In this document: piece after piece, positions 1 to 43,640 of the stretch | Layout: each line of letters opens with the position of its first letter | Numbering within the stretch: position 1 is the first letter of the stretch | DNA from: Bolinopsis microptera | Taxonomy: Eukaryota; Ctenophora; Tentaculata; Lobata; Bolinopsidae | Direction of reading: 5' to 3' | Length of the DNA stretch: 64,000 nt | NCBI RefSeq assembly: GCF_026151205.1 | Contig: NC_087075.1 | Coordinates: 13,901,628-13,965,627, forward strand | Translations under genes and position numbers: made by a program | Notes under the pieces: model-generated | The model's input: the letters and a program-made list of their open reading frames with translations, nothing else | Told to the model about the DNA's origin: nothing | Databases searched by the model: none

Positions 1-3000
1 AGCAGCCAACACTTGACTAATACTCATTCAGGCGTTACTGAAGCAGCCAACACTTGACTAATACTCATTCAGGCGTTACTGAAGCAGCCAACACTTGACT
101 AATACTCATCCAGGCGTTACTGAAGCAGCCAACACTTGACTAATACTCATTCAGGCGTTACTGAAGCAGCCAACACTTGACTAATACTCATTCAGGCGTT
201 ACTGAAGCAGCCAACACTTGACTAATACTCATTCAGGCGTTACTGAAGCAGCCAACACTTGACTAATACTCATTCAGGCGTTACTGAAGCAGCCAACACT
301 TGACTAATACTCATTCAGGCGTTACTGAAGCAGCCAACACTTGACTAATACTCATTCAGGCGTTACTGAAGCAGCCAACACTTGACTAATACTCATTCCA
401 GGCGTTACTGAAGCAGCCAACACTTGACTAATACTCATTCAGGCGTTACTGAAGCAGCCAACACTTGACTAATACTCATTCAGGCGTTACTGAAGCAGCC
501 AACACTTGACTAATACTCATTCAGGCGTTACTGAAGCAGCCAACACTTGACTAATACTCATTCAGGCGTTACTGAAGCAGCCAACACTTGACTAATACTC
601 ATTCAGGCGTTACTGAAGCAGCCAACACTTGACTAATACTCATTCAGGCGTTACTGAAGCAGCCAACACTTGACTAATACTCATTCAGGCGTTACTGAAG
701 CAGCCAACACTTGACTAATACTCATTCAGGCGTTACTGAAGCAGCCAACACTTGACTAATACTCATTCAGGCGTTACTGAAGCAGCCAACACTTGACTAA
801 TACTCATTCAGGCGTTACTGAAGCAGCCAACACTTGACTAATACTCATTCAGGCGTTACTGAAGCAGCCAACACTTGACTAATACTCATTCAGGCGTTAC
901 TGAAGCAGCCAACACTTGACTAATACTCATTCAGGCGTTACTGAAGCAGCCAACACTTGACTAATACTCATTCAGGCGTTACTGAAGCAGCCAACACTTG
1001 ACTAATACTCATTCAGGCGTTACTGAAGCAGCCAACACTTGACTAATACTCATTCAGGCGTTACTGAAGCAGCCAACACTTGACTAATACTCATTCAGGC
1101 GTTACTGAAGCAGCCAACACTTGACTAATACTCATTCAGGCGTTACTGAAGCAGCCAACACTTGACTAATACTCATTCAGGCGTTACTGAAGCAGCCAAC
1201 ACTTGACTAATACTCATTCAGGCGTTACTGAAGCAGCCAACACTTGACTAATACTCATTCAGGCGTTACTGAAGCAGCCAACACTTGACTAATACTCATT
1301 CAGGCGTTACTGAAGCAGCCAACACTTGACTAATACTCATTCAGGCGTTACTGAAGCAGCCAACACTTGACTAATACTCATTCAGGCGTTACTGAAGCAG
1401 CCAACACTTGACTAATACTCATTCAGGCGTTACTGAAGCAGCCAACACTTGACTAATACTCATTCAGGCGTTACTGAAGCAGCCAACACTTGACTAATAC
1501 TCATCAGGCGTTACTGAAGCAGCCAACACTTGACTAATACTCATTCAGGCGTTACTGAAGCAGCCAACACTTGACTAATACTCATTCAGGCGTTACTGAA
1601 GCAGCCAACACTTGACTAATACTCATTCAGGCGTTACTGAAGCAGCCAACACTTGACTAATACTCATTCAGGCGTTACTGAAGCAGCCAACACTTGACTA
1701 ATACTCATTCAGGCGTTACTGAAGCAGCCAACACTTGACTAATACTCATTCAGGCGTTACTGAAGCAGCCAACACTTGACTAATACTCATTCAGCGTTAC
1801 TGAAGCAGCCAACACTTGACTAATACTCATTCAGGCGTTACTGAAGCAGCCAACACTTGACTAATACTCATTCAGGCGTTACTGAAGCAGCCAACACTTG
1901 ACTAATACTCATTCAGGGCGTTACTGAAGCAGCCAACACTTGACTAATACTCATTCAGGCGTTACTGAAGCAGCCAACACTTGACTAATACTCATTCAGG
2001 CGTTACTGAAGCAGCCAACACTTGACTAATACTCATTCAGGCGTTACTGAAGCAGCCAACACTTGACTAATACTCATTCAGGCGTTACTGAAGCAGCCAA
2101 CACTTGACTAATACTCATTCAGGCGTTACTGAAGCAGCCAACACTTGACTAATACTCATTCAGGCGTTACTGAAGCAGCCAACACTTGACTAATACTCAT
2201 TCAGGCGTTACTGAAGCAGCCAACACTTGACTAATACTCATTCAGGCGTTACTGAAGCAGCCAACACTTGACTAATACTCATTCAGGCGTTACTGAAGCA
2301 GCCAACACTTGACTAATACTCATTCAGGCGTTACTGAAGCAGCCAACACTTGACTAATACTCATTCAGGCGTTACTGAAGCAGCCAACACTTGACTAATA
2401 CTCATTCAGGCGTTACTGAAGCAGCCAACACTTGACTAATACTCATTCAGGCGTTACTGAAGCAGCCAACACTTGACTAATACTCATTCAGGCGTTACTG
2501 AAGCAGCCAACACTTGACTAATACTCATTCAGGCGTTACTGAAGCAGCCAACACTTGACTAATACTCATTCAGGCGTTACTGAAGCAGCCAACACTTGAC
2601 TAATACTCATTCAGGCGTTACTGGAAGCAGCCAACACTTGACTTATACTCATTCAGGCGTTACTGAAGCAGCCAACACTTGACTAATACTCATTCATGGC
2701 GTTACTGAAGCAGCCAACACTTGACCTAATACTCATTCAGGCGTTACTGAAGCAGCCAACACTTGACTAATACTCATTCAGGCGTTACTGAAGCAGCCAA
2801 CACTTGACTAATACTCATTCAGGCGTTACTGAAGCAGCCAACACTTGACTAATACTCATTCAGGCGTTACTGAAGCAGCCAACACTTGACTAATACTCAT
2901 TCAGGCGTTACTGAAGCAGCCAACACTTGACTAATACTCATTCAGGCGTTACTGAAGCAGCCAACACTTGACTAATACTCATTCAGGCGTTACTGAAGCA

Positions 3001-5819
3001 GCCAACACTTGACTATACTCATTCAGGCGTTACTGAAGCAGCCAACACTTGACTAATACTCATTCAGGCGTTACTGAAGCAGCCAACACTTGACTAATAC
3101 TCATTCAGGCGTTACTGAAGCAGCCAACACTTGACTAATACTCATTCAGGCGTTACTGAAGCAGCCAACACTTGACTAATACTCATTCAGGCGTTACTGA
3201 AGCAGCCAACACTTGACTAATACTCATTCAGGCGTTACTGAAGCAGCCAACACTTGACTAATACTCATTCAGGCGTTACTGAAGCAGCCAACACTTGACT
3301 AATACTCATTCAGGCGTTACTGAAGCAGCCAACACTTGACTAATACTCATCAGGCGTTACTGAAGCAGCCAACACTTGACTAATACTCATTCAGGCGTTA
3401 CTGAAGCAGCCAACACTTGACTAATACTCATTCAGGCGTTACTGAAGCAGCCAACACTTGACTAATACTCATTCAGGCGTTACTGAAGCAGCCAACACTT
3501 GACTAATACTCATTCAGGCGTTACTGAAGCAGCCAACACTTGACTAATACTCATTCAGGCGTTACTGAAGCAGCCAACACTTGACTAATACTCATTCAGG
3601 CGTTACTGAAGCAGCCAACACTTGACTAATACTCATTCAGGCGTTACTGAAGCAGCAACACTTGACTAATACTCATTCAGTGCGTTACTGAAGCAGCCAA
3701 CACTTGACTAATACTCATTCAGGCGTTACTGAAGCAGCCAACACTTGACTAAACTCATTCAGGCGTTACTGAAGCAGCCAACACTTGACTAATACTCATT
3801 CAGGCGTTACTGAAGCAGCCAACACTTTGACTAATACTCATTCAGGCGTTACTGAAGCAGCCACACTTGACTAATACTCATTCAGGCGTTACTGAAGCAG
3901 CCAACACTTGAATAATACTCATTCTCAGGCGTTACTGAAGCAGCCAACACTTGACCAATACTCATTCAGGCGTTACTGAAGCAGCCAACACTTGACTAAT
4001 ACTCATTCAGGCGTTACTGAAGCAGCCAACACTTGACTAATACTCATTCAGGCGTTACTGAAGCAGCCAACACTTGACTAATACTCATTTCAGGCGTTAC
4101 TGAAGCAGCCAACACTTGACTAATACTCTTCAGGCGTTACTGAAGCAGCCAACACTTGACTAATACTCATTCAGGCGTTACTGAAGCAGCCAACACTTGA
4201 CTAATACTCATTCAGGCGTTACTGAAGCAGCCAACACTTGACTAATACTCATTCAGGCGTTACTGAAGCAGCCAACACTTGACTAATACTCATTCAGGCG
4301 TTACTGAAGCAGCCAACACTTGACTAATACTCATTCAGGCGTTACTGAAGCAGCCAACACTTGACTAATACTCATTCAGGCGTTACTGAAGCAGCCAACA
4401 CTTGACTAATACTCATTCAGGCGTTACTGAAGCAGCCAACACTTGACTAATACTCATTCAGGCGTTACTGAAGCAGCCAACACTTGACTAATACTCATTC
4501 AGGCGTTACTGAAGCAGCCAACACTTGACAAATACTCATTCAGGCGTTACTGAAGCAGCCAACACTTGACTAATACTCATTCAGGCGTTACTGAAGCAGC
4601 CCAACACTTGACTAATACTCATTCAGGCGTTACTGAAGCAGCAACACTTGACTAATACTCATTCAGCGTTTACTGAAGCAGCCAACACTTGACTAATACT
4701 CATTCAGGCGTTACTGAAGCAGCCAACACTTGACTAATACTCATTCAGGCGTTACTGAAGCAGCCACACTTGACTAATACTCATTCAGGCGTTACTGAAG
4801 CAGCCAACACTTGACTAATACTCATTCAGGCGTTACTGAGCAGCCAACACTTGACTAATACTCATTCAGGCGTTACTGAAGCAGCCAACACTTGACTAAT
4901 ACTCATTCAGGCGTTACTGAAGCAGCCAACACTTGACTAATACTCATCAGGCGTTACATGAAGCAAGGCACCGTTCTCTACTGAAGCAGCCACACTTGAC
5001 TAATACTCATCAGGCGTTACTGAAGCAGCCAACACTTGACTAATACTCATTCAGGCGTTACTGAAGCAGCCAACACTTGACTAATACTCATTCAGGCGTT
5101 ACTGAGCAGCCAACACTTGACTAATACTCATCAGGCGTTACTGATAGCAGCAACACTTGACTAATACTCATTCAGGCGTTACTGAAGCAGCCAACACTTG
5201 ACTAATACTCATTCAGGCGTTACTGAAGCAGCCAACACTTGACTAATACTCATTCAGGCGTTACTGAAGCAGCCAACACTTGACAATACTCATTCAGGCG
5301 TTACTGAAGCAGCCAACACTTGACTAATACTCATTCAGGCGTTACTGAAGCAGCCAACACTTGACTAATACTCATTCAGGCGTTACTGAAGCAGCCAACA
5401 CTTGACTAATACTCATTCAGGCGTTACTGAAGCAGCCAACACTTGACTAATACTCATTCAGGCGTTACTGAAGCAGCCAACACTTGACTAATACTCATTC
5501 AGGCGTTACTGAAGCAGCCAACACTTGACCAATACTCATTCATCAGGCGTTACTGAAGCAGCCACACTTGACTAATACTCATTCAGGCGTTACTGAAGCA
5601 GCCAACACTTGACCAATACTCATTCAGGCGTTACTGAAGCAGCCAACACTTGACTAATACTCATTCAGGCGTTACTGAAGCAGCCAACACTTGACTAATA
5701 CTCATTCAGGCGTTACTGAAGCAGCCAACACTTGACTAATACTCATTCATGCGTTACTGAAGCAGCCAACACTTGACTAATACTCATTCAGGCGTTACTG
5801 AAGCAGCCAACGCTTGACC
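1..5819. repeat. 41-bp satellite array, about 140 copies
   Basis: A head-to-tail repeat of a 41-bp unit that begins AGCAGCCAACACTTGAC and ends GGCGTTACTGA fills the window from its first base. Units are almost identical from 1 to about 2,600. From about 3,600 to 5,760 single-base indels and substitutions become frequent, and one unit near 4,957-4,990 is scrambled. The unit is not a multiple of three and carries stops, so it does not code. The array starts outside the window, so its real length is unknown. Confidence 0.97.
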
Positions 5820-8881: not shown

Positions 8882-9502
8882 ATGATGATGATCCTCACGA
8901 GATTTTGTTTGTTGATAGTTTGTTGCGTAGCCATTTGCAATGCCGCCTCAGATGTACAGAGTATCGAATCTTCGGATGAGACGATGGTATTTGATCTTAT
9001 CTACGGATGCTTCGAGGACAGAGGAGAGGATTTAGCTCCATGTGACCACTACCAAAACCAGATTGATTGCCTAAAACCTTTCTCCGCTAACCAGTTTGTT
9101 AAAGAGCTGCTGGAAGGATTGGATTCTACAGTGAGTATCTATGGCTGCCAAAAGAAGGACGAGTCACAAGCCATCGCTAATGAAGTAGAAGCCTCAGATG
9201 CGGAGAACGATGTAGCAGAAAACGAGCTTGAAAGTGAAAGTGAAAGCGAAAGTGCCGTGCACCACCGAGAACGCAGAATGTTCAAATCCCCCTGCCAGAA
9301 CTACAAGCACCCTCGCCTGGACAACGCCTGCGCCAACTGGATGTTCAACAACTACCACCTTCTCAACCCTGGCTGGGAGAAGTGCTCCACCTTCGACTAC
9401 AACTACACCAAACCTTGTGGCTGGTACTGGGCTAAGTGCAAGAGAGCTCATAGGAACCACCACTGTTGCGTCAGTGTTCACTGTCACGGAGGACTCGGCT
9501 AG
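8882..9502 (+). CDS. Secreted cysteine-rich protein 1 (one N-module, RERR site)
   Basis: The protein has 206 residues and I do not recognise its family. The first ATG is at 8882; the frame is open further upstream only through non-ATG codons. Residues 1-21 are a clear signal peptide (MMMILTRFCLLIVCCVA). A short module follows with FDLIYGC at 37-43 and cysteines at 54, 63 and 89. An acidic Glu/Ser linker (about 90-125) ends in RERR at 129-132, a furin-type R-x-R-R site. Then comes the eight-cysteine domain (138-206) shared with the next two genes, with landmarks NNYH, NPGW, WAKC and CC-x4-C. One glycosylation sequon (NYT) lies in it. The gene is intronless in the coding part and an AATAAA signal lies at 9612-9617. 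Cleavage at RERR would release a 74-residue, histidine- and tryptophan-rich peptide; this is an inference. Confidence 0.85.
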   Translation: MMMILTRFCLLIVCCVAICNAASDVQSIESSDETMVFDLIYGCFEDRGEDLAPCDHYQNQIDCLKPFSANQFVKELLEGLDSTVSIYGCQKKDESQAIANEVEASDAENDVAENELESESESESAVHHRERRMFKSPCQNYKHPRLDNACANWMFNNYHLLNPGWEKCSTFDYNYTKPCGWYWAKCKRAHRNHHCCVSVHCHGGLG

Positions 9503-9611
9503 AAAGATCACGTGTGGAGTAACTTTTTTAACCGGACGTAGAGGACTTCAGACTCTTTACGACCAATTTCACTTGCACTTTCATTTTAAATAGTGGGAGT
9601 GTGAGTGAGCA

Positions 9612-9617
9612 AATAAA
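9612..9617 (+). terminator. Polyadenylation signal AATAAA of cysteine-rich gene 1
   Basis: A canonical AATAAA lies 110 bases after the stop codon of the gene ending at 9502. Confidence 0.55.
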
Positions 9618-12600
9618 GACAGTTGTTGCTGTGTGAAGCAAGCGTGAACTTCAACGGAAGACTTCGTGAATGTTTCATGTTTTTTAACAGACTATTTAGC
9701 CTGGATATGGCCTTTATTTTAATGTTGATCGAGTTTAGTGACTGAACTATGGTACAACTGAACGATTGATGTGTTTCTGTACAAATGTATTTTTATGATG
9801 GACCGCGTATTAATTGTTAGGAGAGTTCACATTTTTGTAATTTTTTATCAATTCCAGAGTCTTTACCGTCACTGACACTTCCCAAAGTGTCATCGATTAT
9901 TTTTGTCAAATCGTCGCCATTTTTGCACCTCTGAACCCTCCTTTAATTGATGCCATTTAATGTGAACTCTCCAAACTAACCATGACCTCAAGTTGATGAT
10001 TTGGGTTAATTTGGGTAACAATCCTGCAGACTGCAGAAGGATTAGGTTAATTGGATAATTGATGATATCACGTGGGTAGCGGGTGGGTCTCTAACATGTG
10101 TAGAGGTAACACCTTGTCTACCCGCCGTATGATATCACTGATTACTTCATACCTTTTACTTATTGCTTTCAATTTGACACCGAGCCTAACCCTGTGAGTT
10201 GACAGTTGATGACGCTGTGGTTGCTAAAGTGATCACATGTTGGAGTTAAAATGTCACAGATTTAAGTTAAATCATGGATTTTTGTTAAATTTGTGATTTT
10301 TAACGCCTTCGCACGGTCGTCTTTAGCTACCATGGTGATGTCATCTTATTGTAACAAAATTTAAACCGGTTTAAATTTAGAGTATGACGAGCCTGCATGT
10401 AGTGATTATAAAATTGTGTTTGTATTTAAGTTATTTGTACAAGTATACTTTCAATTCAAAGTGTATAGATATGATATGGTGTAAATGTAACGCGGAGATG
10501 TCAATTAAAATGCCGCCTTGAAACGTAAACTGCATGGATGTTATTTAAATTGTATTTAAAATTAATTTAAATCTAAATTATGAATGTTATATTTAACATG
10601 ATAATGTGGTCGTAATTTAAATTTATTTACAGCATAGCTCTTATTTTTTTTTCAAAGTTATCAGCTAGGTATTTATCTCTTTATTTTTTAATGAGTTGAA
10701 CTTTTACTTCTTGTGTTATTATGTATCCAATTTGTGATTCAACATACAATTTTGTATCTCAAAAAGTTTTTTAGAAAAGGTTTGTCTTTCCTGTTTCCAA
10801 ATAAAATTCGAATAACAAGATGGTGTGGAATTTAAAAAAATCAGAAATCGGAACAATTCCAAAATTAAGCGGCAACAGATAATCCAATTTACGGAATTAC
10901 TCGGATAAAAATAGAAAATCTGCAACAGCAAAGTAAGCTGCAACAGTAAAGCCAAATGATCGAGCCGTCGAAATGTCCACAATCGATTTGTAAAAATGAC
11001 TTTGTAATGAATGACACGGTTACTATATTGGTTGGTAATATTTATCAAATTAAATTTAATTATCCTAACTCAAAGAATCTGTAAAGACGTTGAAGCGTAC
11101 GTGTCAAATTAAGATCAGCGACATAACATAACTTGCTCTTTTGATCTAAATATAATGTTAATCTGATTTGTTCAGCTTATCCTTAGTTGTGGCTCAGTCC
11201 CTGCAGACGACTACAAATTATAAACTGATTATTATTGACCTTTTCCTTCCGGCGTAAAGAGGTACCTATGCAACGTGTATCCACCTTTTCCTTGCACCTA
11301 GTATTTTCCATTACTATATTATAGTAACGCCCGAAAAGTTTATTTTTACAACATTTCCTTTTCAATCCTACAGTAACTCCTTAGTCCTAACTCTTGCACG
11401 TTTACAGCATTTTTTCCTGCAGTAGCTCCCTTATCGCACACATTTGCAACAACGACAGCCTATCATGTGAAGCGAGGACCTGTAAAGTATACCAGACTTT
11501 GCTAATCGTACCAGCTACCAGATTATGAGATTTATCTTATAAATAGACTTCAGTAATATGTCATGACTAATCTTGGAAAAAATCAACAAGCTTTACACGT
11601 GTCACGGTGACACGACTAGTCTAACTCTGTTTATTTCATTTTCACGTGGTGTGAATACTGTGCTCTGATTGGTTAGTTTGAGCCACGTGGTATGAATCGT
11701 AATGAGATGATGGGCTGATTTAAAGTGGCCGTTTTCCTACACATGCAGTAAACAATTCTCTGAATAGCTCAGCTCTCCTAGTTACACCTAGCACAGGTCT
11801 AAAAGACGGAAATGACACGCGTTTTTCCAGGAATACAACAGGTCAACTTCAGTTATTTTGGCCTGCTAGCTAGTCTCATCTCTTTGAAAACTTTTTTCCG
11901 TCTTAAAGTCTTGCTCGTTACCAGGTAAGTAACTTAGAGCTTCAAAATACTTGTCATCTCTTCTTTTGGAAAGACTTTTAGGCGACTCAAAGTAAAAGCC
12001 GAGTAACTTGCTCTGAACAGAAAACCTCCAAAGTACCTCCTCGACACTGCAGTGTCCAGTCAGCAATAACTTTGAGAGTAACCAGCGCAAATTCCTGCAC
12101 CACACCTCTCCAAACGTCTAAAACCCTAATCTATGACTCGTTTAATATCCCTCTAATCTATAACTAAGCTTAGCGTTAATACTCCACCAGACCGGCCACC
12201 TGAATACCATACTCTTCAACAGCCCAACCAACCTCCAGTACCACCAGGCACGATGTAATTCTGGGCGGGTATTCACATGTTCTTCTATTGGTCCACTAGA
12301 TAATACTCAATACCTTACGTTACAAGTCATCATGCCCGTAATTATAATAAATTTGGTGTAGCACTCTCCAAAAATGTAAGAAATGCGCAAATCTTAATCA
12401 GTGTCACAACAGTCCCACAACAGCGGCGAGAAGGATACTGCATGATCAAATTAGGTGGCAGACATGAAATATTTAAGGAGACTTAAATCTGCTGATAGTA
12501 CGAATTATAAAACAGGTACAGCATGAGCAGGTACAGGGTCTGGGTATAGTACAGGAGTGACGCCATCTCATATCTCCGTGTATGCTAGGTCCTTAATTGG

Positions 12601-12777
12601 ATAATTGAATGTATTTTCGTCGGTCTTTTGTTAGGATCTGTCGTGCACCTATAATACGAATTTAACAAGCGCTAATTGATCATTGTTGTCACCTTCATTT
12701 ACTTTAAAACATTCTAGCGCCAAGGCTGCACTATTTCCGTTTGTTTGATACGACGTTAGGACGTTATTACGGCGACC
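9618..12777. other. Intergenic between cysteine-rich genes 1 and 2
   Basis: Only short chance frames are seen. A small imperfect foldback occurs around 10,060-10,135, its ends sharing TGATATCA with GGGTAG/CTACCC inside it. Otherwise nothing is recognised. Confidence 0.45.
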
Positions 12778-13677
12778 ATGATGGTCTTTTCAAAGGTGTT
12801 TGTGTTCATACTTTGTTTCGGTATTAATGCTTCTCAAACTGAAAGTGATGTTTACACCGAGAATGACATAGAGAATGACCTGCTAGTGTTTGATTTTATC
12901 TACGGCTGCCTGTCCGAGTACAGTGAAAAAGTGGCAAGCTCTCTGAGCCACGCACGGCAGCAGGAAAAACATCAGATATCTGAAGAATGTGCGTTTTACC
13001 CGGGATTCAAAAAGTGTCTCCAGACCAAATCAGGGAACACCTACGTGGATGAGTTTATGGTCTCTCTGGACGACACGATGGGTTTCTGTGAGTGTATCAG
13101 CAGGGAGATTCTTCTTTCTTCCACTAGCCTGGGGGAGGCGGCATATTGTAGGGTTTGCGAGGAGCAGGTGTATTGTTTGGGGCCGTATTCAGATAACCCC
13201 TTTATTGGGGAGCTGTTACCGGGGTTAGATATGGCGGTTAAGTCTAAACGCTGTGTTGAAGCTAAAACACAGGAGAGGGAGAGGGAACTGGAGAAGGAAA
13301 GGAGAAAAGAAGAGAAAAGAAAAGAGACGGAAACGAATCAATTCGAAAGGGCAGGAAATGCCGTAGCAAGTCGGTTCGACCATTTTACCGAGAGGAACTC
13401 AGTGATTTCAACAACATCTCCAACTTATTTATTACCAGATAACATGGAGACACCGTGTACAGACCGTGACCACCCCACAGGTGCTATGACTCTGAAATGT
13501 GTGCACTGGTTGTACAACAACTACCACGTGGCTAATCCCGGGTGGAAACATTGCAGTAATTTTACTGGATCGTACGGTAAAAAATGTGGGTTGTACTGGG
13601 CTAAATGCAAGAAATCGGGTAAGACAAGTAACAAAAACTGTTGTATCAGTATTCACTGCTACGGGGGACTTGGTTGA
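12778..13677 (+). CDS. Secreted cysteine-rich protein 2 (two N-modules, charged linker)
   Basis: This is a 299-residue paralogue of the genes at 8882 and 15686. A signal peptide (about 1-19, MMVFSKVFVFILCFG) is followed by FDFIYGC at 38-44. Two related cysteine modules come next, one at 71-106 (C-x8-C-L, then YVDEF...LDDTM) and one at 124-159 (CRVCEEQVYCL, then FIGELLPGLD). The linker at about 164-195 is highly charged (repeated Glu-Arg/Lys) and could form a helix or coiled coil; a serine/threonine stretch follows. The C-terminal domain (227-299) has the eight invariant cysteines, NNYH, NPGW, YWAKC and CCISIHC, with one NFT sequon. Unlike gene 1 there is no RxRR site directly before the C-domain. 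Coding is uninterrupted. Function unknown. Confidence 0.87.
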   Translation: MMVFSKVFVFILCFGINASQTESDVYTENDIENDLLVFDFIYGCLSEYSEKVASSLSHARQQEKHQISEECAFYPGFKKCLQTKSGNTYVDEFMVSLDDTMGFCECISREILLSSTSLGEAAYCRVCEEQVYCLGPYSDNPFIGELLPGLDMAVKSKRCVEAKTQERERELEKERRKEEKRKETETNQFERAGNAVASRFDHFTERNSVISTTSPTYLLPDNMETPCTDRDHPTGAMTLKCVHWLYNNYHVANPGWKHCSNFTGSYGKKCGLYWAKCKKSGKTSNKNCCISIHCYGGLG

Positions 13678-13917
13678 TGTTGAGCAGTTTTTTAGGATTT
13701 ATTTGCAGTGCTGACAGTTTGTTAGGATGTAATTAATGATATCAAGTTGCAGGTATTTTAAGTGTTTATAATTGATTTATATTTTTGTATGTTGTGCAAA
13801 GATTTATGACATTTTATGAGATACTGAGGTTTGAGTATGAATAATGCAATATATGCAATATATATATATATAATAAGGATGTCGCGTCATTTTTTATTGC
13901 GGATGTTTAACTGTGAA

Positions 13918-13923
13918 AATAAA
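13918..13923 (+). terminator. Polyadenylation signal AATAAA of cysteine-rich gene 2
   Basis: AATAAA lies about 240 bases beyond the stop at 13677, after a TA-dinucleotide run (about 13,859-13,872). Confidence 0.45.
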
Positions 13924-15685
13924 CTACAAGTTTAACTTGAAACCTGATGCAACACAGTTAAAACTTAACGAAATGTTATTTTAAAGTTTAGATATTTTTG
14001 AACCTAAATCCAAGTGTGAAACTGAAACTTTTATAAAACTTATATAAAAATGAAACTTCTATATATACGACTAAGTCTGGGAGGGCTTCACAGCGTGCCC
14101 GGATATGTCATAAAAAGTAAGTATATCCTGTGCTTGGTGTCCTAGCTCCAAGATTTAAGCCTCCTAGTTAAAACCGATTGAATCATAAGTTTAAGGGATA
14201 TGCCGGGTCAAATTGGCATTATAAAAGTTTGAGTAAGCTATTATAGAGTTATAGGAGCTTGGAACTTACAAATAAAAACGCTTACCTGACTCAGAGTGCT
14301 TAAAGGTGGCGGATTGTAGACTGTAGTTAATAGTAGTAGTAGTTCACTAGTTGATCTGATCCCCAATCATACCAATGTTTCATCAGTGATAAGATAGAGT
14401 CCACCAAGTTTTGATACATCTTTAATAAACCAAGGACCAAATTAGGGGCCATCTATAATATGCCGCACGTCCTAAGCTGTAGATGGCCATTATTAGATAT
14501 GTTTATTATCACACTGCTCGTGGGGGTGACGGACATTTTTGTTCCAAAATATAAAAAAACTAATTTCAGTCTCCAAGTATAATGTAGTGAACCGACCTTT
14601 CGCTTACATCCCTTTTTGGTGTTCTTTGAGAAACTACTTTTCATCGCCCTCCAGAAATTTGCCGCCTAAAGAGTGATAAACTTTGCAGTTTTGGACGGTA
14701 ATTTTTAATAGTTCCGATGGAATGTCGCGGGTATAAAGAGGAATGTAGACATTTTTAAGTGGTAGGCTTTGCCAGTTTGACGGGGAACCTGTGGCCTGTA
14801 AGTGGAGGTCGAACAGTTTGTTGAAACACTGGGTGTCTCCATCTAATTTTCTTGAATCTGAAGATCTAAAATAAGGTTCCAAAGAAAAATATTTATCATC
14901 AGCTGCTATTAGTGATATAAAATACTTATACAGCATTATTATTCACGATTACTGAATTTTTCTTCCGTTAGTACAAAGCCTATTTTGCTGAACTATCTTT
15001 TGTACATTTCTGATGAAATCCGAAACGGTCGCTTCGTTACTTATCAATATTCGGAATGACTTTGATCCGATTATCTAAGCTTGAATCGCCCTTTGTAACA
15101 GTATAACTTGGCTGGGGTTGTGATACTAGGGATATGGAGGTTGGTGTGAAGACCCCCCTCTAAATGAAGGATCAGGTGGCAGATTCCTGATCCTCCCCAA
15201 GTCTAATCGAGTTGGTGGACAAAGATCACAGATCATAACATGAACGAAAAACGGGCCCGATAAATATTCCTATTACGAAACGCTTCAAGAATTGTCAATT
15301 GCAACAACTTTTAACATACACAGGGCGTTGTGAGTGCAAAACACAAAAGGACAAACCTTAAGAAATAACCTAGCTACGACCTTTACCCGAAGCAATTGTA
15401 CTTCTATTTCAACATAATTTTGTGTCTGCGGTTACAGACAAAAATAGAGCTCTGAATACAGACCCGTACGAAAATAAACTGAGAAGCCACCCGGTGGCCA
15501 CATATTTCAGGGCAGTAACAGAACCACACCGACACTCACTGATCTCAGCGAGTTAAGAGCAAGTATGCAGCGAGCGATGAGCGACGATTGAATATTTTGT
15601 CACTTTGGATCTTGTGAAAATCCGCACAAAACTTTCGATCTGTCATTTTTAGCTTGATAGCGGCTAATTTGTGTGCTTTGTCATC
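13924..15685. other. Intergenic between cysteine-rich genes 2 and 3
   Basis: No gene is supported. A 100-codon frame on the minus strand (14634-14936) has no recognisable domain, no paralogue in the window and no splice context, and is probably chance. Confidence 0.45.
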
Positions 15686-16576
15686 ATGATTGTTGCGAGG
15701 TTATTTTTACTGGTCGCTTGCTTCGATCTTTGCCTTGCTAAAACTGATTCGTACGTCACGAGCCTTGTTCCCACTGAATCCAACGGAGAGCTGCACGTCT
15801 ACGACTTTGTCTACAGATGTATGAGGGAGTACAGTGAGAACCTGTTCCGAGCACTTCACCACGACTTCTCCACTCTGGAACAGATAGACCAGGAGTGTAA
15901 TCTCTACACGGAATTCCAAGAGTGTCTAGCCCCTAAGTCCGGGGACACGTACGTTGCGATGTTCATAGCGGGACTGGGAGAGGAGATGAAGTTCTGTCAG
16001 TGTTTTGATGAGTTAAATGACTTTCTAAACATCCCGGGGGTGAATGAAGCTACCGCAGCTAATATCGTGTGCCCGATGTATGAAGTACAGGCGGACTGTC
16101 TACAGACGTACTTCTACAGGAACCCTTTTGTTAAGAACGTTCTTGCAGAGCTGGAGGTGAAGATGGATTCTGATTACTGTGACATTCCTCCCACCTTGTC
16201 CACCGACGGTTTGATTACACCGGGTACGGCCACTACACCGCAGTCAGAAACCATGACAGGGGGTCTGAGCACAGAACCGGGCACATGGCCAGCCACAATG
16301 CCAGCCACAATGCACGCCACCGTAACCACACCCGAGGAAGGTCCGGATGATGTGCGGGGACACTGCTCCGATACACCACACCCACACTCGCGGGAATGTG
16401 CTCATTGGCTCCACGGTAACTACCACACAGTAAACCCCGGCTGGAAACCTTGTCCGAGTATCACAGCAGGTGGGTATTCCCGACCTTGTGGGTACTGGTG
16501 GGCTAAGTGCAGCAAGGTGGTGAAGAATAAACCGTGTTGTATTAGTGCACATTGCTATGGTGTTAGGGGAGCATGA
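15686..16576 (+). CDS. Secreted cysteine-rich protein 3 (two N-modules, Thr/Pro linker)
   Basis: The first ATG is at 15686; the five codons before it start at a GTG and are not used. The 296-residue product has a signal peptide (about 1-18, MIVARLFLLVACFDLCLA), then YDFVYRC at 39-45. Its two cysteine modules (71-106 and 129-165) align with those of gene 2: C-x8-C-L with YVAMF...LGEEM, then CPMYEVQADCL with FVKNVLAELE. The linker (about 166-222) is rich in threonine, proline and alanine, including repeated PATM, and looks like an O-glycosylated mucin-type spacer. The eight-cysteine C-domain occupies 227-296 with GNYH, NPGW, WWAKC and CCISAHC. The gene lies about 2 kb after gene 2 on the same strand, as expected of a tandem family. 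Function unknown. Confidence 0.87.
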   Translation: MIVARLFLLVACFDLCLAKTDSYVTSLVPTESNGELHVYDFVYRCMREYSENLFRALHHDFSTLEQIDQECNLYTEFQECLAPKSGDTYVAMFIAGLGEEMKFCQCFDELNDFLNIPGVNEATAANIVCPMYEVQADCLQTYFYRNPFVKNVLAELEVKMDSDYCDIPPTLSTDGLITPGTATTPQSETMTGGLSTEPGTWPATMPATMHATVTTPEEGPDDVRGHCSDTPHPHSRECAHWLHGNYHTVNPGWKPCPSITAGGYSRPCGYWWAKCSKVVKNKPCCISAHCYGVRGA

Positions 16577-21500: not shown

Positions 21501-23538
21501 AACATGGATACGGATCTACAGAAAATGGCACTGAATATTACTAGATATTATACATCTACTATAGAAGTTAATACTACCGATTGGATCTAGAAGATGTTCA
21601 GAACAACAACGGAATACGCGTACGATCATAGGGAACACGATGGAATTCGAAACATGTTGGTATTATGGACTTTAACCGTCGTGCTGACATCGCTTTTAGG
21701 AGACAGTGTCATTCTGCTAGCTACAATCAAATACAAAGCTATAAAACTACACAGAGTTATAATCACAGTTATGCAACATATGGCAATATCTGATCTACTG
21801 CAGACAGTCTTTGTAGTATTTCCAACAACTTTGGCCTTGATATTTGATCGCTGGGTGTTAGGCGAGTTTTTCTGTTATCTGCAGGAATGTGTTCGCTGGT
21901 TTGCGTTTACAGTGATTGTCTTTCTAACAGCTGTTTTAACGACCTTAAAGCTGGGGATCTTATCAGTTTTCAAGTCTTATCAGTTAATTGCTTTTGCGTC
22001 GGTTTAAACAGCTCTCACTGTGTAGCAGATAATATACTCGTGTATATTAAACTGGCCCTGCGTGTACATTGTACATCATGGTTAACAAATACTTGGAGAA
22101 TCTTGACAATGAAATAGCGTTGAATTACTCTACACTCAAATTCAGATCAATGTATGCTGAACAGATTTTGGGTGCTCAGATTATGCTACTCAACGATATG
22201 CGTCAAGCGGCAGGTGTTCAGAAATCCAATGTGTTACGTAAAGAAACGCTCAACAAGCCTCAGATCACCAAGGCTACGCTGTGTGATTGGATGGAAACTT
22301 TTATCGACATTCTCGACAGTTATTGTTCACCGCTGTTGTTTTCAGCCACCAAACTACAAGATGAAATCGACCAACTGAAGGACGAAAAGATTGCAGATCA
22401 GAACACTGTGATTAAACTGCAAGGACAATTGCTTGAGAAGAAAAGTGAAGATTTGACCTCTGTTCAGACGACAGTGAAAAGCGAACTCAAAGCCTGGTCG
22501 TCAGTTGTGAAGAATTCATGCAGCAAGGCGCTAGCGCCTAAGAAAATGAAAGCTGCTCTGAAACGTGCCTCCGAGGAAGAGGATCGTAGTCAAAATCTGG
22601 TCATCTACGGTCTACCAGAAAAGAGTGAAGAAATCCTGGAAAAGAGAGTGCTTGAGGTACTAGAAAACATAGATGAGAAACCTCGAATCGTTTCTTGCTG
22701 TAGGATGGGGAGAACTGTATCAGATGGAGGACCAGCCGTTAAACCTATCAAGTTCACTCTCAGCGGCTCAGATCATGTGCGGCAAGTGTTGAGCAAAGCG
22801 AGAAAACTAAGAGAAGTGGAGGGGTATGACTCAGTGTACATCAGCCCCGACCGATCAGCCGAGCAGAGAGCTGCCTTCAGGAAGTTAGTTCTTGAAGTTA
22901 AGCAGAAACGGGAATTGGAGCCTCAGCGAGTTCATGTTATAAGGAACAATAAGATCGTAAGCTCCGAGAAGGACTGATGGGATATGATTTTTTATCAACA
23001 TATTATTTAATTGATTTTCATTTACCAGGGACTAGGCTTGTGCGGTGTGGTTTCGACTACAATTTTACTGCGTTCTGGTTTCCCTTTGAGATTTACATAC
23101 ATCTGTCCTTTAGAGATCGCAATCAGTTATATTTTGTTTTTATTTTGCGCCACATGTTATATTGTATGTAAATTTTGAAAAGATTTTCATAAAAAAAAGG
23201 ATCCTGGTCCTCTGTGTTCGCACACAAGATCTGTGCAGCCGTGTGGCTCTTTTCTCTGGGTTTCAATGCACCACAACTTTCCGTAATGACGTTGCCTCAC
23301 AATTCTAATGGAACAGTTTTCCTTGATTATATTACCCACATATGTGAAATAGAATATAATACTTATTTTTTTCAACCAGATTTTTATCTTTATTATGTGA
23401 TAGCAGCTTTTATTGGCATCCCTATAATATTTAATGTGACCATTGTAGTAACTTCAATACTTCTTTTAATAATAGCAAAAAGACCAGCAGCTCAACACGC
23501 TAACACACTACGATGGGAGGGTGTATCTACGGAGAGAG

Positions 23539-23582
<44 letters not shown>

Positions 23583-26500
23583 TGTATCTACGGTACTACC
23601 AACTTCAGCAGTACTGTTGATTTCCCAGATAGGTTGGTGGTTAAATTCTGGGACAGATTTCAGTCATCTCCACCTGGACTTCTCGATCATATATATATAT
23701 CGCGTGTTCATACATCTTCAGTTCCTTAACATCATGGCAAACTTTTTTATCTGCAAATTTTTCGAATCTTCTTAAAGCTAAAGATAACCAGATTCATCTC
23801 TCTGCTACGGCCCCTCCATGGAACTAATACAAGACCAGCAACTGTACCACGTCCACGTGAAGAACTTCATCTCAGACAGGCACGTCCTCACAGACTTGCT
23901 ACAAACCAAGATACTCCAGAAACACAAGATACTCAAGGAGGACAAGATGGAATCATCCTTCCGTCAGTAGTTTAACTACAATGGTATCACGGAGGAGCTG
24001 AGACGATTGATATTGAAACCATTAGCTTTAGAGTGTTTAGTGATTATTTATAAATGCTAAAATGATATTTTCTTGTGATTATTTTACTCAATTTTCACGT
24101 GCGTCATACGTGCAAGACGGAATTCTCGAATTATTAGTAAGACTAGGCCCGTGGTCACATGGAAAAAGCTAATATGATTCTTTGATCGTCAGATTTGTTT
24201 GCAACAACAAAACCGATCATAATGTCGTTCCAACAATAGGGGGGGGGGGGGGGGGGGTCCAAGGGGAACTTTGGGGAGTTTTGGGGAACTTTTTTTTGGG
24301 GAACTTCAGGAAACCTGGGGGACTTTCCCAAAGTTCCCCAAAGAATTATCAATGAAACAAATAATTTTGGGGAATTTTGGGGAACTTTTTTTTGGGGAAC
24401 TTCAGAAAGTTCCCCAAAATTCCCCAAAGTTCCCCAAAGTTCCCCAAAGTTCCCCAAAAAAATTATCATGCCTAAAAAATTATCATGCTGCAAGTATCAA
24501 CAAGTAAGTTAAGATTATACCTTATAATAACATACATGTTAACATTAATGGGTATTAATGTATATTAGAGAAATTTTGAATAATTTTGAATAATTTTGAA
24601 TAATTTTGAATAATTTTGAATAATTTTGAATAATTTTGGGGAATTTTGGGGAACTTTGGGGAGTTTTGGGGAACTTTTTTTTGGGGAACTTCAGAAATCT
24701 TGGGGGACTTTCCCAAAGTTCCCCAAAGTTCCCCTTGGACCCCCCCCCAACAATAATTGCACGTGCGCGGTTTCATTTTAGTAATTATGCAACTTACTAT
24801 TTCTCTTCTAATTTGCACGTGGGTGGTCGTGCGTGCGGAAAGAAATTTTCGAATTATAAGTAAGATGCCCTTACCATTAAAAGCGAACTCGTTCATAGGT
24901 TTGCCGGTAGGGAACTTGTATATTCTGAACCAATCTCTGGTAGCCTCCAGGTATCCTGGCATTACCCTTTCAACGTCCCTGCAAACGGAGGTTATAATCT
25001 ATAAATCGCATTCTCAATATTTATAGATCTATAGATAATATACAACATATAATCAATCATTGCACACATTTTATGGTATCAGTCAGACGTTTTATTCAAA
25101 TAAAACATGAGTCAGACGTTTTATTTAAATAAAATATGAAATAAAATACAAAATGGTACATAACATATATATAGCCCGCTCATATAATGGTTGATAAGAT
25201 GAGGACAAAGTTCTGGTTCTGAACGTGAATATTTACAATTTAAAATATATTAAAATTCCTAAGCTATGAATATATTAATTACATACCCGATATCGTTAAG
25301 CTCTCCAGCTAGAGGGTCGTTTCTATCGATGCAAATCAACTTCCAGTCAGTTTCCCCTTCGTCTATCATTGCTAGCACTCCTGTAATTGTAGATATAATT
25401 ATGTAATTGTAGATATAATTATGTAATTGTACATATAATTATGTAATTGTAGATATAATTATGTACATACAATCTTACAAGTTAAGCAGTAGATACAGGT
25501 GTTATCTACTGCCTATCATACATGGTTTGATTATTAGCGACTTTAAAATATAACTTTTGCCCGGTATTATTATTCGCTTTAAAACCCAGAAATGCGGCAG
25601 AGGTTTTTACAATAACCCAAATTACTATTTGTCGCTATTTTCACTTACCAAGTATTTTAACTTGTTTTACTTCTCCTCTCTTGGCTACACCGGCTCCAAT
25701 CTGAGATATAGTTAGTTGGAATGGAATATGGATCTGTAATGACTTTGCAGGTATTTGCCAGGTATTTACCAGGTATTTGTCAGGTATTTGCAAGGTATTT
25801 GTCAGGTATTTTCCAGGTATTTTTAGGTATTTGTCAGGTATTTGTCAGGTATTTGTCAGGTATTTGCCAGATATTTGCCAGGTATTTTTCAGGTATTTGT
25901 CAGGTATTTGCCAGCTATTCGCCAGATATTTTTCAGGTATTTGCCAGGTATTTGTCAGGTATTTGCCAGGTATTTTCCAGGTATTTTCCAGGTATTCGCC
26001 AGGTATTTGCCAGGTATTATTCAATCTATCTCACTATCAACTTAATAACACCAGAATGTGTGTGTGTCTGTGTGTCTGTGTGTAATTTCCGAACGGTTAT
26101 ACAAAAAAAAGGTAATAGTTACGGGACTGGTTTTTTCGGTATAGTGCTGACAAAACTCTGACGAAGCCCATAAGCAAATTTTATAAAAATCGGCCGGTGG
26201 TAAGTGGTTTAATTGATGATTTTGTTCCAGAAATGTGACATAAATGGATGGGAGAGAGAACGAGGAGGATAACATGTACCGTAATTAGTTTAGCCCCACG
26301 TAATACTATAAGCTTAGAGCTCACTCTTGCGGCCGCTTTGTTTCAACTGTAGGGAGATTTCATACTTTCATAAGACAGCGTTATGCGTGATATCAAATAT
26401 ATAATGCGGTTGTATACTTTTACATTGCAACTGTGACAGTTAAGTCCCGGCCGAAGGCACGGGTTACACTAGTATTATTATAATATGTGATACAAATGTG

Positions 26501-41563: not shown

Positions 41564-42517
41564 TCACTCTTCTGAAACCTCTTCCTCTACATTCTCAGCC
41601 TCATCATCAACTTCATTATCTTCATCATCAACATCATCACCCCTGTCTTCATCGTTGGTGGTGTGTGCAAGATTTAGGTCCAGTTCGTCAACAGGTATTG
41701 CTTTCTCATAATACCGTCCTCTGTGTCCTCTCACTGCAATCAATACTGTCTTAAGTAGCTCAAACCTCAAACGACGTCTTAGATTTGCCATAATGAGGCT
41801 TTTGTCCTGGCTGGTCTTGGCTGCCAGAAGTGTTGCTACTCGTTTAAGGAACATGGTAGCCTGTGGGCCCATACCTCCGGTGGTCGAGAATACGAGGCCA
41901 TTGCAGGTTCCTTTTTCAATTTGTACACAGCGATCTCCATATTTCCTTTCTTTCTCTCTCTCATGCTTGCTGTACATCTTTGCTGGGGTGTTGTGGTTAG
42001 CGTTGGATTTGGCTCCGGGGTGTAAAACCCTGATATCAAAAAATGCCATCTCCATTGGTGACCACAAACCTCTAGCTGCTATGTCGAGCCTTGCCCCATC
42101 ATCCAGAATGGTACCAGGGCGAAGGCTTTCTCCAGTGCATGGCTGGAGTGTGGGCTCTACAACAACCTCATTACAGATTTTTTCAAGAATGCTTGCAACA
42201 GTGTCTCTCAGTCGGTTGTGTCTGCTGTTGACAAAGCCTCCTTTCTTGCAAATAAGAATGTGGTTGTAGGTGTTATCTTTGCCACAAATGCATTTCTTGG
42301 CTATGTTGGCAATGGGTAGTGCATATCTCAATGCTATCGCGTCTTTGAACCCTCGCTTGTTCAAGACAAAGCCGTACTTCTCATAGGGAAGTCCGGTCAG
42401 CCAGCTTGATGCACCTTTTTCACATGCATGTGGGATCTTCTTGCTGATCGAAGGTGGAAGATCGTTCATCAGCTGGTTTTTCAGTGACTCATACCTCTTG
42501 GCATTAGAGGAAAACAA
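41564..42517 (-). CDS. LINE C-terminal part: zinc knuckle and restriction-like endonuclease
   Basis: A 317-codon open frame, the better kept half of the LINE described over 41430-43640. Residues about 35-60 (KGASSWLTGLPYEKYGF) precede the CxC...H...C knuckle near residues 76-90. The endonuclease core lies around residues 140-175, and a conserved FSTTGGMG stretch follows. The ATG at its start is chance: in related elements this segment continues directly from the RT thumb, so it is a fragment of a larger protein, not a gene of its own. Confidence 0.75.
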   Translation of the reverse strand: MFSSNAKRYESLKNQLMNDLPPSISKKIPHACEKGASSWLTGLPYEKYGFVLNKRGFKDAIALRYALPIANIAKKCICGKDNTYNHILICKKGGFVNSRHNRLRDTVASILEKICNEVVVEPTLQPCTGESLRPGTILDDGARLDIAARGLWSPMEMAFFDIRVLHPGAKSNANHNTPAKMYSKHEREKERKYGDRCVQIEKGTCNGLVFSTTGGMGPQATMFLKRVATLLAAKTSQDKSLIMANLRRRLRFELLKTVLIAVRGHRGRYYEKAIPVDELDLNLAHTTNDEDRGDDVDDEDNEVDDEAENVEEEVSEE

Positions 42518-42860
42518 ATTTTTTTTTTTAGGAAAACAAATTTAAATTTTGGTATTTATTAATAACAATCAAAACATATCATATCATAAAAATAAAGCCG
42601 CGCGTTGGTTGACTGCCTCAGTAAGGTGAATAATATAAGCTCGATGGTGCCCTGCGCATTTATAGAACCTCATGCGGCGATCACATGATCATGAGGACCT
42701 GTGAGCGCCAAATTTAATTTAAAGTTTTTAGAAATCATACATCACTACGAGTTACTCATGCTTTTTTAATTTTTATAGGAGTGTAGATTGTCAGGTATTT
42801 CATTCATTCATACTTAGTCGGTTTAAAGCTGTTATATTTATGTTTAGAACTCACTATTGT
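42518..42860. other. About 340-bp interruption of the LINE
   Basis: This segment separates the two LINE coding parts. Beside it AGGAAAACAAATTT is repeated directly around a T-run (about 42,508-42,542), which suggests a retroposed insertion with a target duplication, but the other edge is unclear. Confidence 0.45.
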
Positions 42861-43640
42861 TTAAACTATGAAAGCAGAACGGAGGTAATGGACAATGTAC
42901 CGACGACAATACCAAGGACCCGAGTGCCACAGGCTAATGGCAGACTTGACTGCTTTCCCAGCCTCTCTGTTGGTATTGAGAGTGGTGTGTTGCTTCAGGA
43001 TGTGGTCTGTAAGCTGCTGGTTAGCCATGAGTGAGTTCTTGTACTCATTATCAGCAATTTCTACTGGATTGATGATAGCTAGTCCACCTAACTTGGCTGG
43101 GAGGGAGAACAGGCTGCGCTCAAAGTTGGACCTAATTGTGTGTCCTGTCATGTTGGGAATGAGAAAATTCCTGATCTTGTCCTCAATCGGCTGCAAGTTC
43201 ACTGCTATGTCAGGGGTGGTCCTCATCAGGAAAGACCATCTGCGGGAGGAGCCGTAAACAAAAGCGGCGTAAGCAAGGTGTGGCTCATGCTGTGCAATTG
43301 ATGCCAATCCCTCGATCTCTTCTATCCATTCAGCACATTTGGCTTGGATAAACTTATTCTTTCCAGACTCTGTACCAATAAAGGAACCCAGGTAACGACA
43401 ACCTTCGGTGGTGATGTTAAGGTCGGGGAAGAGAGACTTGGCTTCCTCTTGATACTCCTCTTTAACTATAAGCCAGGTCTTGGAAGGTTTGGGAAAATAG
43501 CCATAAACGGGGCCAGATGCCTGTAGGGTATCCCACCAAATCTTCAGGGCTTTAAGCCTTCCTGCTGCTCCAGAATCATCTGCAAACCATATGTGTTTAG
43601 CAGCTTTGTTGGAGGGCTTATTTACCTCCGGAGTCCTTTA

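What the first reader, a model, noticed from the sequence alone, without database searches (positions are those of the whole stretch)
8882..16576. Tandem family of secreted proteins with an unrecognised eight-cysteine domain
Three same-strand, intron-free genes share a C-terminal domain with eight cysteines and fixed landmarks: W-x(3)-N-Y-H, NPGW, C-G-x-[YW]-W-A-K-C, CC-[IV]-S-x-H-C-[YH]-G. The spacing (C-x(6)-C and CC-x(4)-C invariant) does not match ShK, EGF, defensin or other cysteine frameworks I know. Conserved histidines and tryptophans hint at metal or glycan binding, which is conjecture.
Basis: partly seen in the sequence, partly recalled or inferred. Interest (0 to 1): 0.75.

Follow-up and report, generated by a model that had tools for sequence, protein, structure and literature searches.

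The report
Comb-jelly family of secreted cysteine-rich proteins
Three neighbouring genes in what is very probably a comb jelly genome encode secreted proteins that end in a positively charged, disulfide-rich domain not found in the domain libraries searched; they seem to belong to a family of about twenty genes that may be a home-grown set of defence or mucus proteins in one of the oldest animal lineages.

Summary
Three intact, intronless frames at 8882-16576 share an 8-cysteine C-terminal domain with the stated landmarks, under purifying selection. No credible Pfam or PDB sequence match was found. The genome is a ctenophore, very probably Bolinopsis microptera. The trio belongs to a wider set of about 20 gene-like loci on C4, C6 and C12. 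The intron-bearing copies have a phase-1 acceptor 2-11 bases before the fourth core cysteine, so the core looks like an exon-sized module, C-x6-C-x(8-14)-CC-x4-C, present in 18 of 18 copies compared. The Trp/NYH landmarks mark one branch and NPGW only the trio, which weakens the metal/glycan idea. All five intronless members pair an acidic N-terminal part with a cationic domain, a layout described for Hydra antimicrobial peptides. Preferred reading: secreted host-defence effectors (0.4); mucus/adhesive module, ligand and venom component are rivals. No fold, expression or cross-species data were obtainable. My own lead that it derives from ShK was tested and not supported.

The parts
8882..9502 (+). 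gene 1: secreted protein, 205-206 aa (ATG 8882 or 8885)
   Evidence: AATAAA at 9612
8990..9148 (+). gene 1 N-terminal Cys module (one repeat unit, 4 Cys)
9266..9277 (+). gene 1 furin-type site RERR between acidic stretch and domain
   Evidence: residues 128-131 from ATG 8885; not shared with g2 or g3
9293..9484 (+). gene 1 eight-cysteine domain, C1 to C8
12778..13677 (+). gene 2: secreted protein, 299 aa
   Evidence: AATAAA at 13918
12886..13254 (+). gene 2 N-terminal module (two repeat units, 9 Cys); AlphaFold2 all-helical, mean pLDDT 66
13456..13659 (+). gene 2 eight-cysteine domain, C1 to C8
   Evidence: AlphaFold2 mean pLDDT 50.5
15686..16576 (+). gene 3: secreted protein, 296 aa from ATG 15686
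   Evidence: no AATAAA/ATTAAA within about 500 bases of the stop (nearest 17109)
15797..16180 (+). gene 3 N-terminal module (two repeat units, 8 Cys)
16364..16555 (+). gene 3 eight-cysteine domain, C1 to C8

Best explanation
The three genes are one branch of a multigene family, seen so far only in this ctenophore genome, of secreted disulfide-rich proteins. Its ancestral unit (inferred) is a short gene: a leader exon (seen in L016 and two C6 units), an exon with C1-C3, a phase-1 intron, and an exon with C4-C8 (C-x6-C-x(8-14)-CC-x4-C). Five members, including the window trio, have one uninterrupted coding frame and carry the unit behind different N-terminal parts: a Cys module predicted helical, an acidic repeat stalk, or almost none. 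Most likely mechanism (inferred): the protein is secreted; the acidic N-terminal part masks the cationic C-terminal domain during transit; in gene 1 a furin-type site could release it; the exposed basic domain then binds anionic microbial surfaces as a host-defence peptide, in mucus or at the body surface. Shown: secretory-type leader, architecture, charge split, homology within the long branch, intron position, purifying selection. Inferred: inclusion of the C6 cluster (supported less strongly), processing, target and role.
For: Charge split in 5 of 5 intronless members: part between leader and domain -20, -13, -24, -20 and (11 aa only) -1, against domain +6 to +9. For the four with a long N-part, residue shuffles reach the domain charge in 0, 79, 1 and 22 of 5000. 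Over the copies compared the domain is net positive in 14 of 17. Furin-type RERR in g1 just before the domain. Clusters of diverged paralogues: trio on C4, nine units in about 22 kb on C6. Homology chain: exon-3 profiles C6-type vs intron-bearing long branch 92%, long branch vs intronless 95%; phase-1 intron just before C4. Analogy from print: passages of PMC10945409 describe Hydra antimicrobial peptides as bipartite in charge, with complex cysteine patterns, without homologues outside Hydra, and periculin genes as clustered.
Against: Three of 17 copies are not cationic: L015 domain 1 -3, L017 0, L018 -5. Only 1 of 5 intronless members has an R-x-[KR]-R site; g2, L004 and L005 have none and g3 only a distant R-x-x-R. 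The trio's N-terminal region is itself constrained (pN 0.41, pS 0.72), more than a simple neutralising propeptide needs. C6-type vs intronless exon-3 profiles match directly at only 19%. Exon-2 profiles of C6-type vs long branch reach 5.6%, hardly above the 2.6% of the unrelated ShK profile, so that link rests on the intermediate branch and the intron. No fold could be assigned. No expression, processing or activity data.
Confidence: 0.4

Rival explanations
1. Structural or adhesive secretion: the domain is a C-terminal cross-linking or anchoring module on acidic, repeat-rich stalks, forming mucus, egg coat or colloblast adhesive.
For: Long acidic tandem repeats precede the domain in L004 (stalk -20) and L015 (418-aa stalk, charge -119); L014 and L015 carry two domains each; g2 has an odd number of N-terminal Cys (9), which allows intermolecular bonds. 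Signal peptides are enriched among ctenophore colloblast and tentacle candidate genes (passages of PMC6278862).
Against: L005, L016 and the C6_a units are short, without a long stalk; L017, L018, L022 and the other C6 units also look short, but full gene models were not built. The same paper found low-complexity regions not enriched in colloblast or tentacle candidates.
Confidence: 0.27
2. Ligand or hormone-like precursor: the N-terminal module is a prodomain and the released Cys domain signals through a receptor.
For: RERR in g1 and an N-terminal module shared by the trio.
Against: Cleavage site not conserved in g2, g3, L004 or L005; many divergent clustered copies are unusual for a ligand (inference).
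Confidence: 0.15
3. Prey-capture or deterrent toxin of tentacle gland cells. The C6-type exon 3 has the order C-C-CC-C-C with loops 6/12/0/4/6, which I recall as the cystine-knot order of many venom peptides.
For: Order seen in 6 of 6 C6-type exon-3 modules aligned in A10; passages of PMC6278862 raise toxin secretion by ctenophore tentacles.
Against: The window genes and the rest of the long branch lack the sixth Cys; profiles of the C6-type modules find no knottin in PDB; Pfam gives no toxin family for the two C6-type exon-3 modules scanned; PMC6278862 found no significant overlap of its candidates with toxin Pfam domains.
Confidence: 0.13
4. Divergent ShK domain in which one cysteine became histidine (register C-x-D...C-x2-W-x3-N-Y-H-x2-NP-x-W).
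For: At least 100 ShK matches in this genome; visual register of C, W and NP with the ShK pattern as I recall it.
Against: hhalign of 15 own-genome ShK copies vs exon-2 profile 2.6%, vs whole domain 0.9%; no Pfam ShK hit in the copies scanned; YH, NPGW and the W are not family-wide.
Confidence: 0.03

Closest known systems
Hydra antimicrobial peptide families (periculin and others)
   Same: Secreted, bipartite charge, complex cysteine pattern, lineage-restricted, clustered paralogues (passages of PMC10945409; periculin's eight Cys is my recollection).
ShK/ShKT domain (PF01549)
   Same: Small disulfide domain abundant in this genome; superficial C..W..NP register.
   Different: Six Cys, different spacing, no profile similarity.
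Inhibitor cystine knot peptides (knottins)
   Same: C6-type exon-3 module has the order C-C-CC-C-C (framework definition recalled).
   Different: The window domain has only five of these cysteines plus three in the preceding module; no knottin match in PDB sequences.
SCRiPs / tau-AnmTx Ueq 12-1 of cnidarians
   Same: 8- or 10-Cys secreted peptides (passages of PMC5450702).
   Different: Marked by a C-terminal triplet of cysteines; none of the 18 exon-3 modules here has CCC.

Membership tests
ShK/ShKT (PF01549) | match to family profile | tested here: not met
   hmmscan; hhalign 2.6% and 0.9%
ShK/ShKT (PF01549) | six-cysteine framework with C-x3-C-x2-C end | tested here: not met
   own-genome ShK alignment vs framework of the window genes
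Inhibitor cystine knot | order C-C-CC-C-C within one module (recalled) | tested here: not met
   five Cys in the exon-3 part of the window genes; the order is met only in the C6-type copies
Inhibitor cystine knot | knotted disulfide pairing | not testable with these tools
   model of the window domain has pLDDT 50.5; by its stated rule the folding tool takes window proteins, not these other loci
SCRiP / Ueq 12-1 group | C-terminal CCC triplet | tested here: not met
   0 of 18 exon-3 modules
Hydra-type antimicrobial peptide precursor | secretory leader plus acidic N-part and cationic Cys-rich C-part | tested here: met
   5 of 5 intronless members, L005 with only an 11-aa N-part of charge -1
Hydra-type antimicrobial peptide precursor | sequence homology to periculin or another named Hydra family | not tested
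   sequences not available in the tools
Hydra-type antimicrobial peptide precursor | antimicrobial activity | not testable with these tools
   needs bench work
Any Pfam-A family | score above curated cut-off | tested here: not met
   stray hits below cut-off (Atrophin-1, Hao_C, DUF1163, DUF5471, OrfA, zf_VAL1_N)

The most novel reading that the evidence does not exclude
Ctenophores evolved their own superfamily of secreted disulfide-rich effectors, unrelated to any described animal peptide scaffold, in which one exon-coded Cys module (C-x6-C...CC-x4-C) was repeatedly recombined with new N-terminal parts (helical Cys module, acidic repeat stalk, short acidic propeptide) and, in one branch, spread as intronless copies. 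It would be a first defined peptide-effector arsenal of the phylum that is probably sister to all other animals.
Probability: 0.33. Interest if true: 0.72.

Novelty: new variant of a known kind. Interest (0 to 1): 0.52.

Why it matters
[quoted passage not shown] The full-text searches made here on their secreted or cysteine-rich proteins listed no paper whose title or shown abstract start describes such a family (20 of 55, 20 of 36, 8 of 8, 2 of 2 and 2 of 2 papers listed). A defined, alignable family with a clear exon module gives probes for expression and activity tests, and shows how lineage-restricted disulfide domains gain new N-terminal partners. If the host-defence reading is right, it makes the question of how so early-branching an animal controls microbes directly testable.

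Tried and rejected
ShK origin: tempting by eye, not supported by profile comparison. Cnidarian origin of the genome: my first guess from ShK abundance; a GFP-family search found nothing, but its control also rang nowhere, so it is uninformative, and COX1 was not found; the photoprotein search pointed to a ctenophore. Relatives in viral contigs and in prokaryote genomes: none confirmed (25 and 14 pattern matches). Structure: AlphaFold2 on three window domains reached only pLDDT 50.5 and on the N-terminal module 66.3; Foldseek gave no match at E 0.001 or better for either (0 of 9 and 0 of 86 matches with E up to 10), so no fold is claimed. PDB hits to PRL phosphatases (best E 0.026) rest on a short stretch around CC-x4-C in what I know as intracellular enzymes and were discarded as chance. 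The comparison of A6 with A2 (98.5%) is circular, because A6 holds members of A2, and is not used. Metal/glycan site: not supported family-wide. The short CC-x-S-x-HC DNA pattern is not specific (30 matches against 18 for the control). Weak hits C5:11735827, C5:8224493, C1:9327742 and C7:2881196 were not followed. Rows left out of the comparison: L014 (near-identical to L015), the second C6_a gene, C6_h exon 2 and C6_d exon 3 (identical to C6_c).

Full report
1. The observation. All three frames are present, intact and on the + strand. The quoted landmarks are in 3 of 3, and the Cys gaps are 11/17/10/6/8/0/4, 13/17/10/6/10/0/4 and 10/17/11/6/8/0/4. In the own-genome search with g2, g3 scores E 6.7e-43 and g1 5.2e-22. 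Domain comparisons give pS 0.79-0.90 against pN 0.31-0.38, which is purifying selection on protein.

2. Which animal. Photoprotein genes are single-exon and tandem in Mnemiopsis (passages of PMC3570280). G000 has 264.65 Mb in 232 contigs and its C1 is 26,206,493 bases. A table passage of PMC11797021 gives Bolinopsis microptera 265 Mb, 346 scaffolds, 13 chromosomes, largest 26.2 Mb, and M. leidyi 248 Mb, largest 20.0 Mb. So the window is very probably B. microptera; the contig count differs.

3. The family. Protein searches found two more members with one uninterrupted frame, on C12: L004 (355 aa, acidic repeats, C-terminal domain) and L005 (112 aa, leader plus domain). They also found intron-bearing members: L014 and L015, a near-identical pair about 90 kb apart with two domains each; L016; L017 and L018; nine units in about 22 kb on C6; and L022 on C4. 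That is 20 gene-like loci (3 + 2 + 2 + 1 + 2 + 9 + 1). Search counts are lower bounds, and complete gene models with leader exons were not built for L017, L018, L022 and most C6 units.

4. One core, one intron. A script listed phase-1 donor and acceptor candidates for 17 exon pairs; one of these joined exons of two different L021 units and is set aside, so that unit's own acceptor was not listed. In the other 16 an in-phase AG acceptor lies 2-5 bases (long branch) or 11 bases (C6 type, L022) before the codon of C4. For the first domains of L014 and L015 the donor lay beyond the script's range; for L015 I read GTAAGT by eye, and L014 has the same peptide there. The other likely donors read GTAAGT, GTGAGT, GTAAGA, GTATGT or GTAAAT, except two C6 units (GTAGAT, GTACAT). 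The window genes have no intron there. The exon-3 module fits C-x6-C-x(5-14)-CC-x4-C in 18 of 18 copies compared; the observed middle gap is 8-14. Exon-3 profiles without shared members match: C6-type vs intron-bearing long branch 92%, long branch vs intronless 95%, C6-type vs intronless directly only 19%. Exon-2 profiles of C6-type and long branch align in register but at only 5.6%. ShK controls give 0.2% and 0.1% against the C6 profiles and 2.6% against the long-branch exon-2 profile, so exon 2 alone does not show the C6 link.

5. What is not general. NPGW is in the trio alone; W-x3-x-Y-H belongs to the long branch, with exceptions. C6-type peptides have ten Cys: an extra one beside C2 and a last one at the C-terminus, both lacking in the long-branch copies compared. 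This joint presence or absence suggests that the two are partners or that their loss was compensated; it may be one event on the tree, so it is weak evidence.

6. Architecture. The trio has a private N-terminal module: searched with the g3 copy, the genome shows only g3 and g2, with g1 recognisable in alignment. AlphaFold2 predicts it all-helical at pLDDT 66 with no PDB match. In 5 of 5 intronless members the part between leader and domain is acidic (-20, -13, -24, -20, and -1 for 11 aa) and the domain basic (+6 to +9, pI 9.0-9.5). Over 17 copies, 14 domains are net positive; L015 domain 1 (-3), L017 (0) and L018 (-5) are not. Gene 1 alone has a furin-type RERR before the domain.

7. Function. 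The charge split, cysteine richness, clustering and divergence resemble what passages of PMC10945409 say of Hydra antimicrobial peptides. That is resemblance in working principle, not membership: no sequence comparison was possible and no activity is known. The acidic repeat stalks of L004 and L014/L015 fit a mucus or adhesive role about as well. I put host defence at 0.4, structural/adhesive 0.27, ligand 0.15, toxin 0.13, ShK derivative 0.03.

8. Known or new. No credible match in Pfam-A, PDB sequences, viral contigs or prokaryote genomes. Paper searches on ctenophore secreted or cysteine-rich proteins listed none that describes it by title or by the shown start of the abstract; apart from the papers named next they were seen only as listings. 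Papers seen in passages: PMC5450702, PMC10945409, PMC4820302, PMC12194522, PMC6278862, PMC11797021, PMC3570280. I rate it a new variant of a known kind: a lineage-restricted secreted cysteine-rich family with an undescribed core module. Confidence that the trio and its long branch are one real family is about 0.95, that the C6 cluster belongs to it about 0.85, and in the mechanism 0.4.

Noticed in passing
G000 C1:21.999-22.007 Mb, C2:11.246-11.273 Mb, C3:3.415-3.801 and 16.39-16.42 Mb, C5:17.0127-17.0264 Mb, C13:11.082-11.094 Mb; singles on C9, C10: 51 full-length or nearly full-length single-frame photoprotein genes, many in arrays (C5: 15 copies at about 939-bp spacing); Mnemiopsis is reported with at least 10 (passages of PMC3570280). 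Assembly duplication not excluded.
   Followed up: partly
L005:1692-2424: A 52-bp minisatellite (14.1 copies, 97% matches) starts inside the last codons of the L005 gene, so the gene's 3' end, stop included, looks like the source or first unit of the array.
   Followed up: partly
window 21594-23729: A rhodopsin-type receptor-like frame (21594-22007) appears interrupted by a transposon-like insert with a 302-aa frame (22069-22977) and may resume at 23214; a very similar 277-aa frame lies beside L015 (5534-6364). Judged by eye.
   Followed up: partly
window 1-5818: 41-bp satellite array, about 121 copies at 98% match in 1-4965, extending to 5818.
   Followed up: no
window 41564-43307, - strand: Frames of 317 and 148 aa that look like pieces of a retroelement (judged by eye).
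   Followed up: no
G000, genome-wide: At least 100 ShK-domain matches (E up to 0.01) in a ctenophore genome (150 of 235 candidates scored).
   Followed up: no
L014 and L015 (C4:14.08 and 14.17 Mb): Near-identical duplicated genes about 90 kb apart that differ mainly in the number of acidic stalk repeats (322- vs 517-aa frame).
   Followed up: partly
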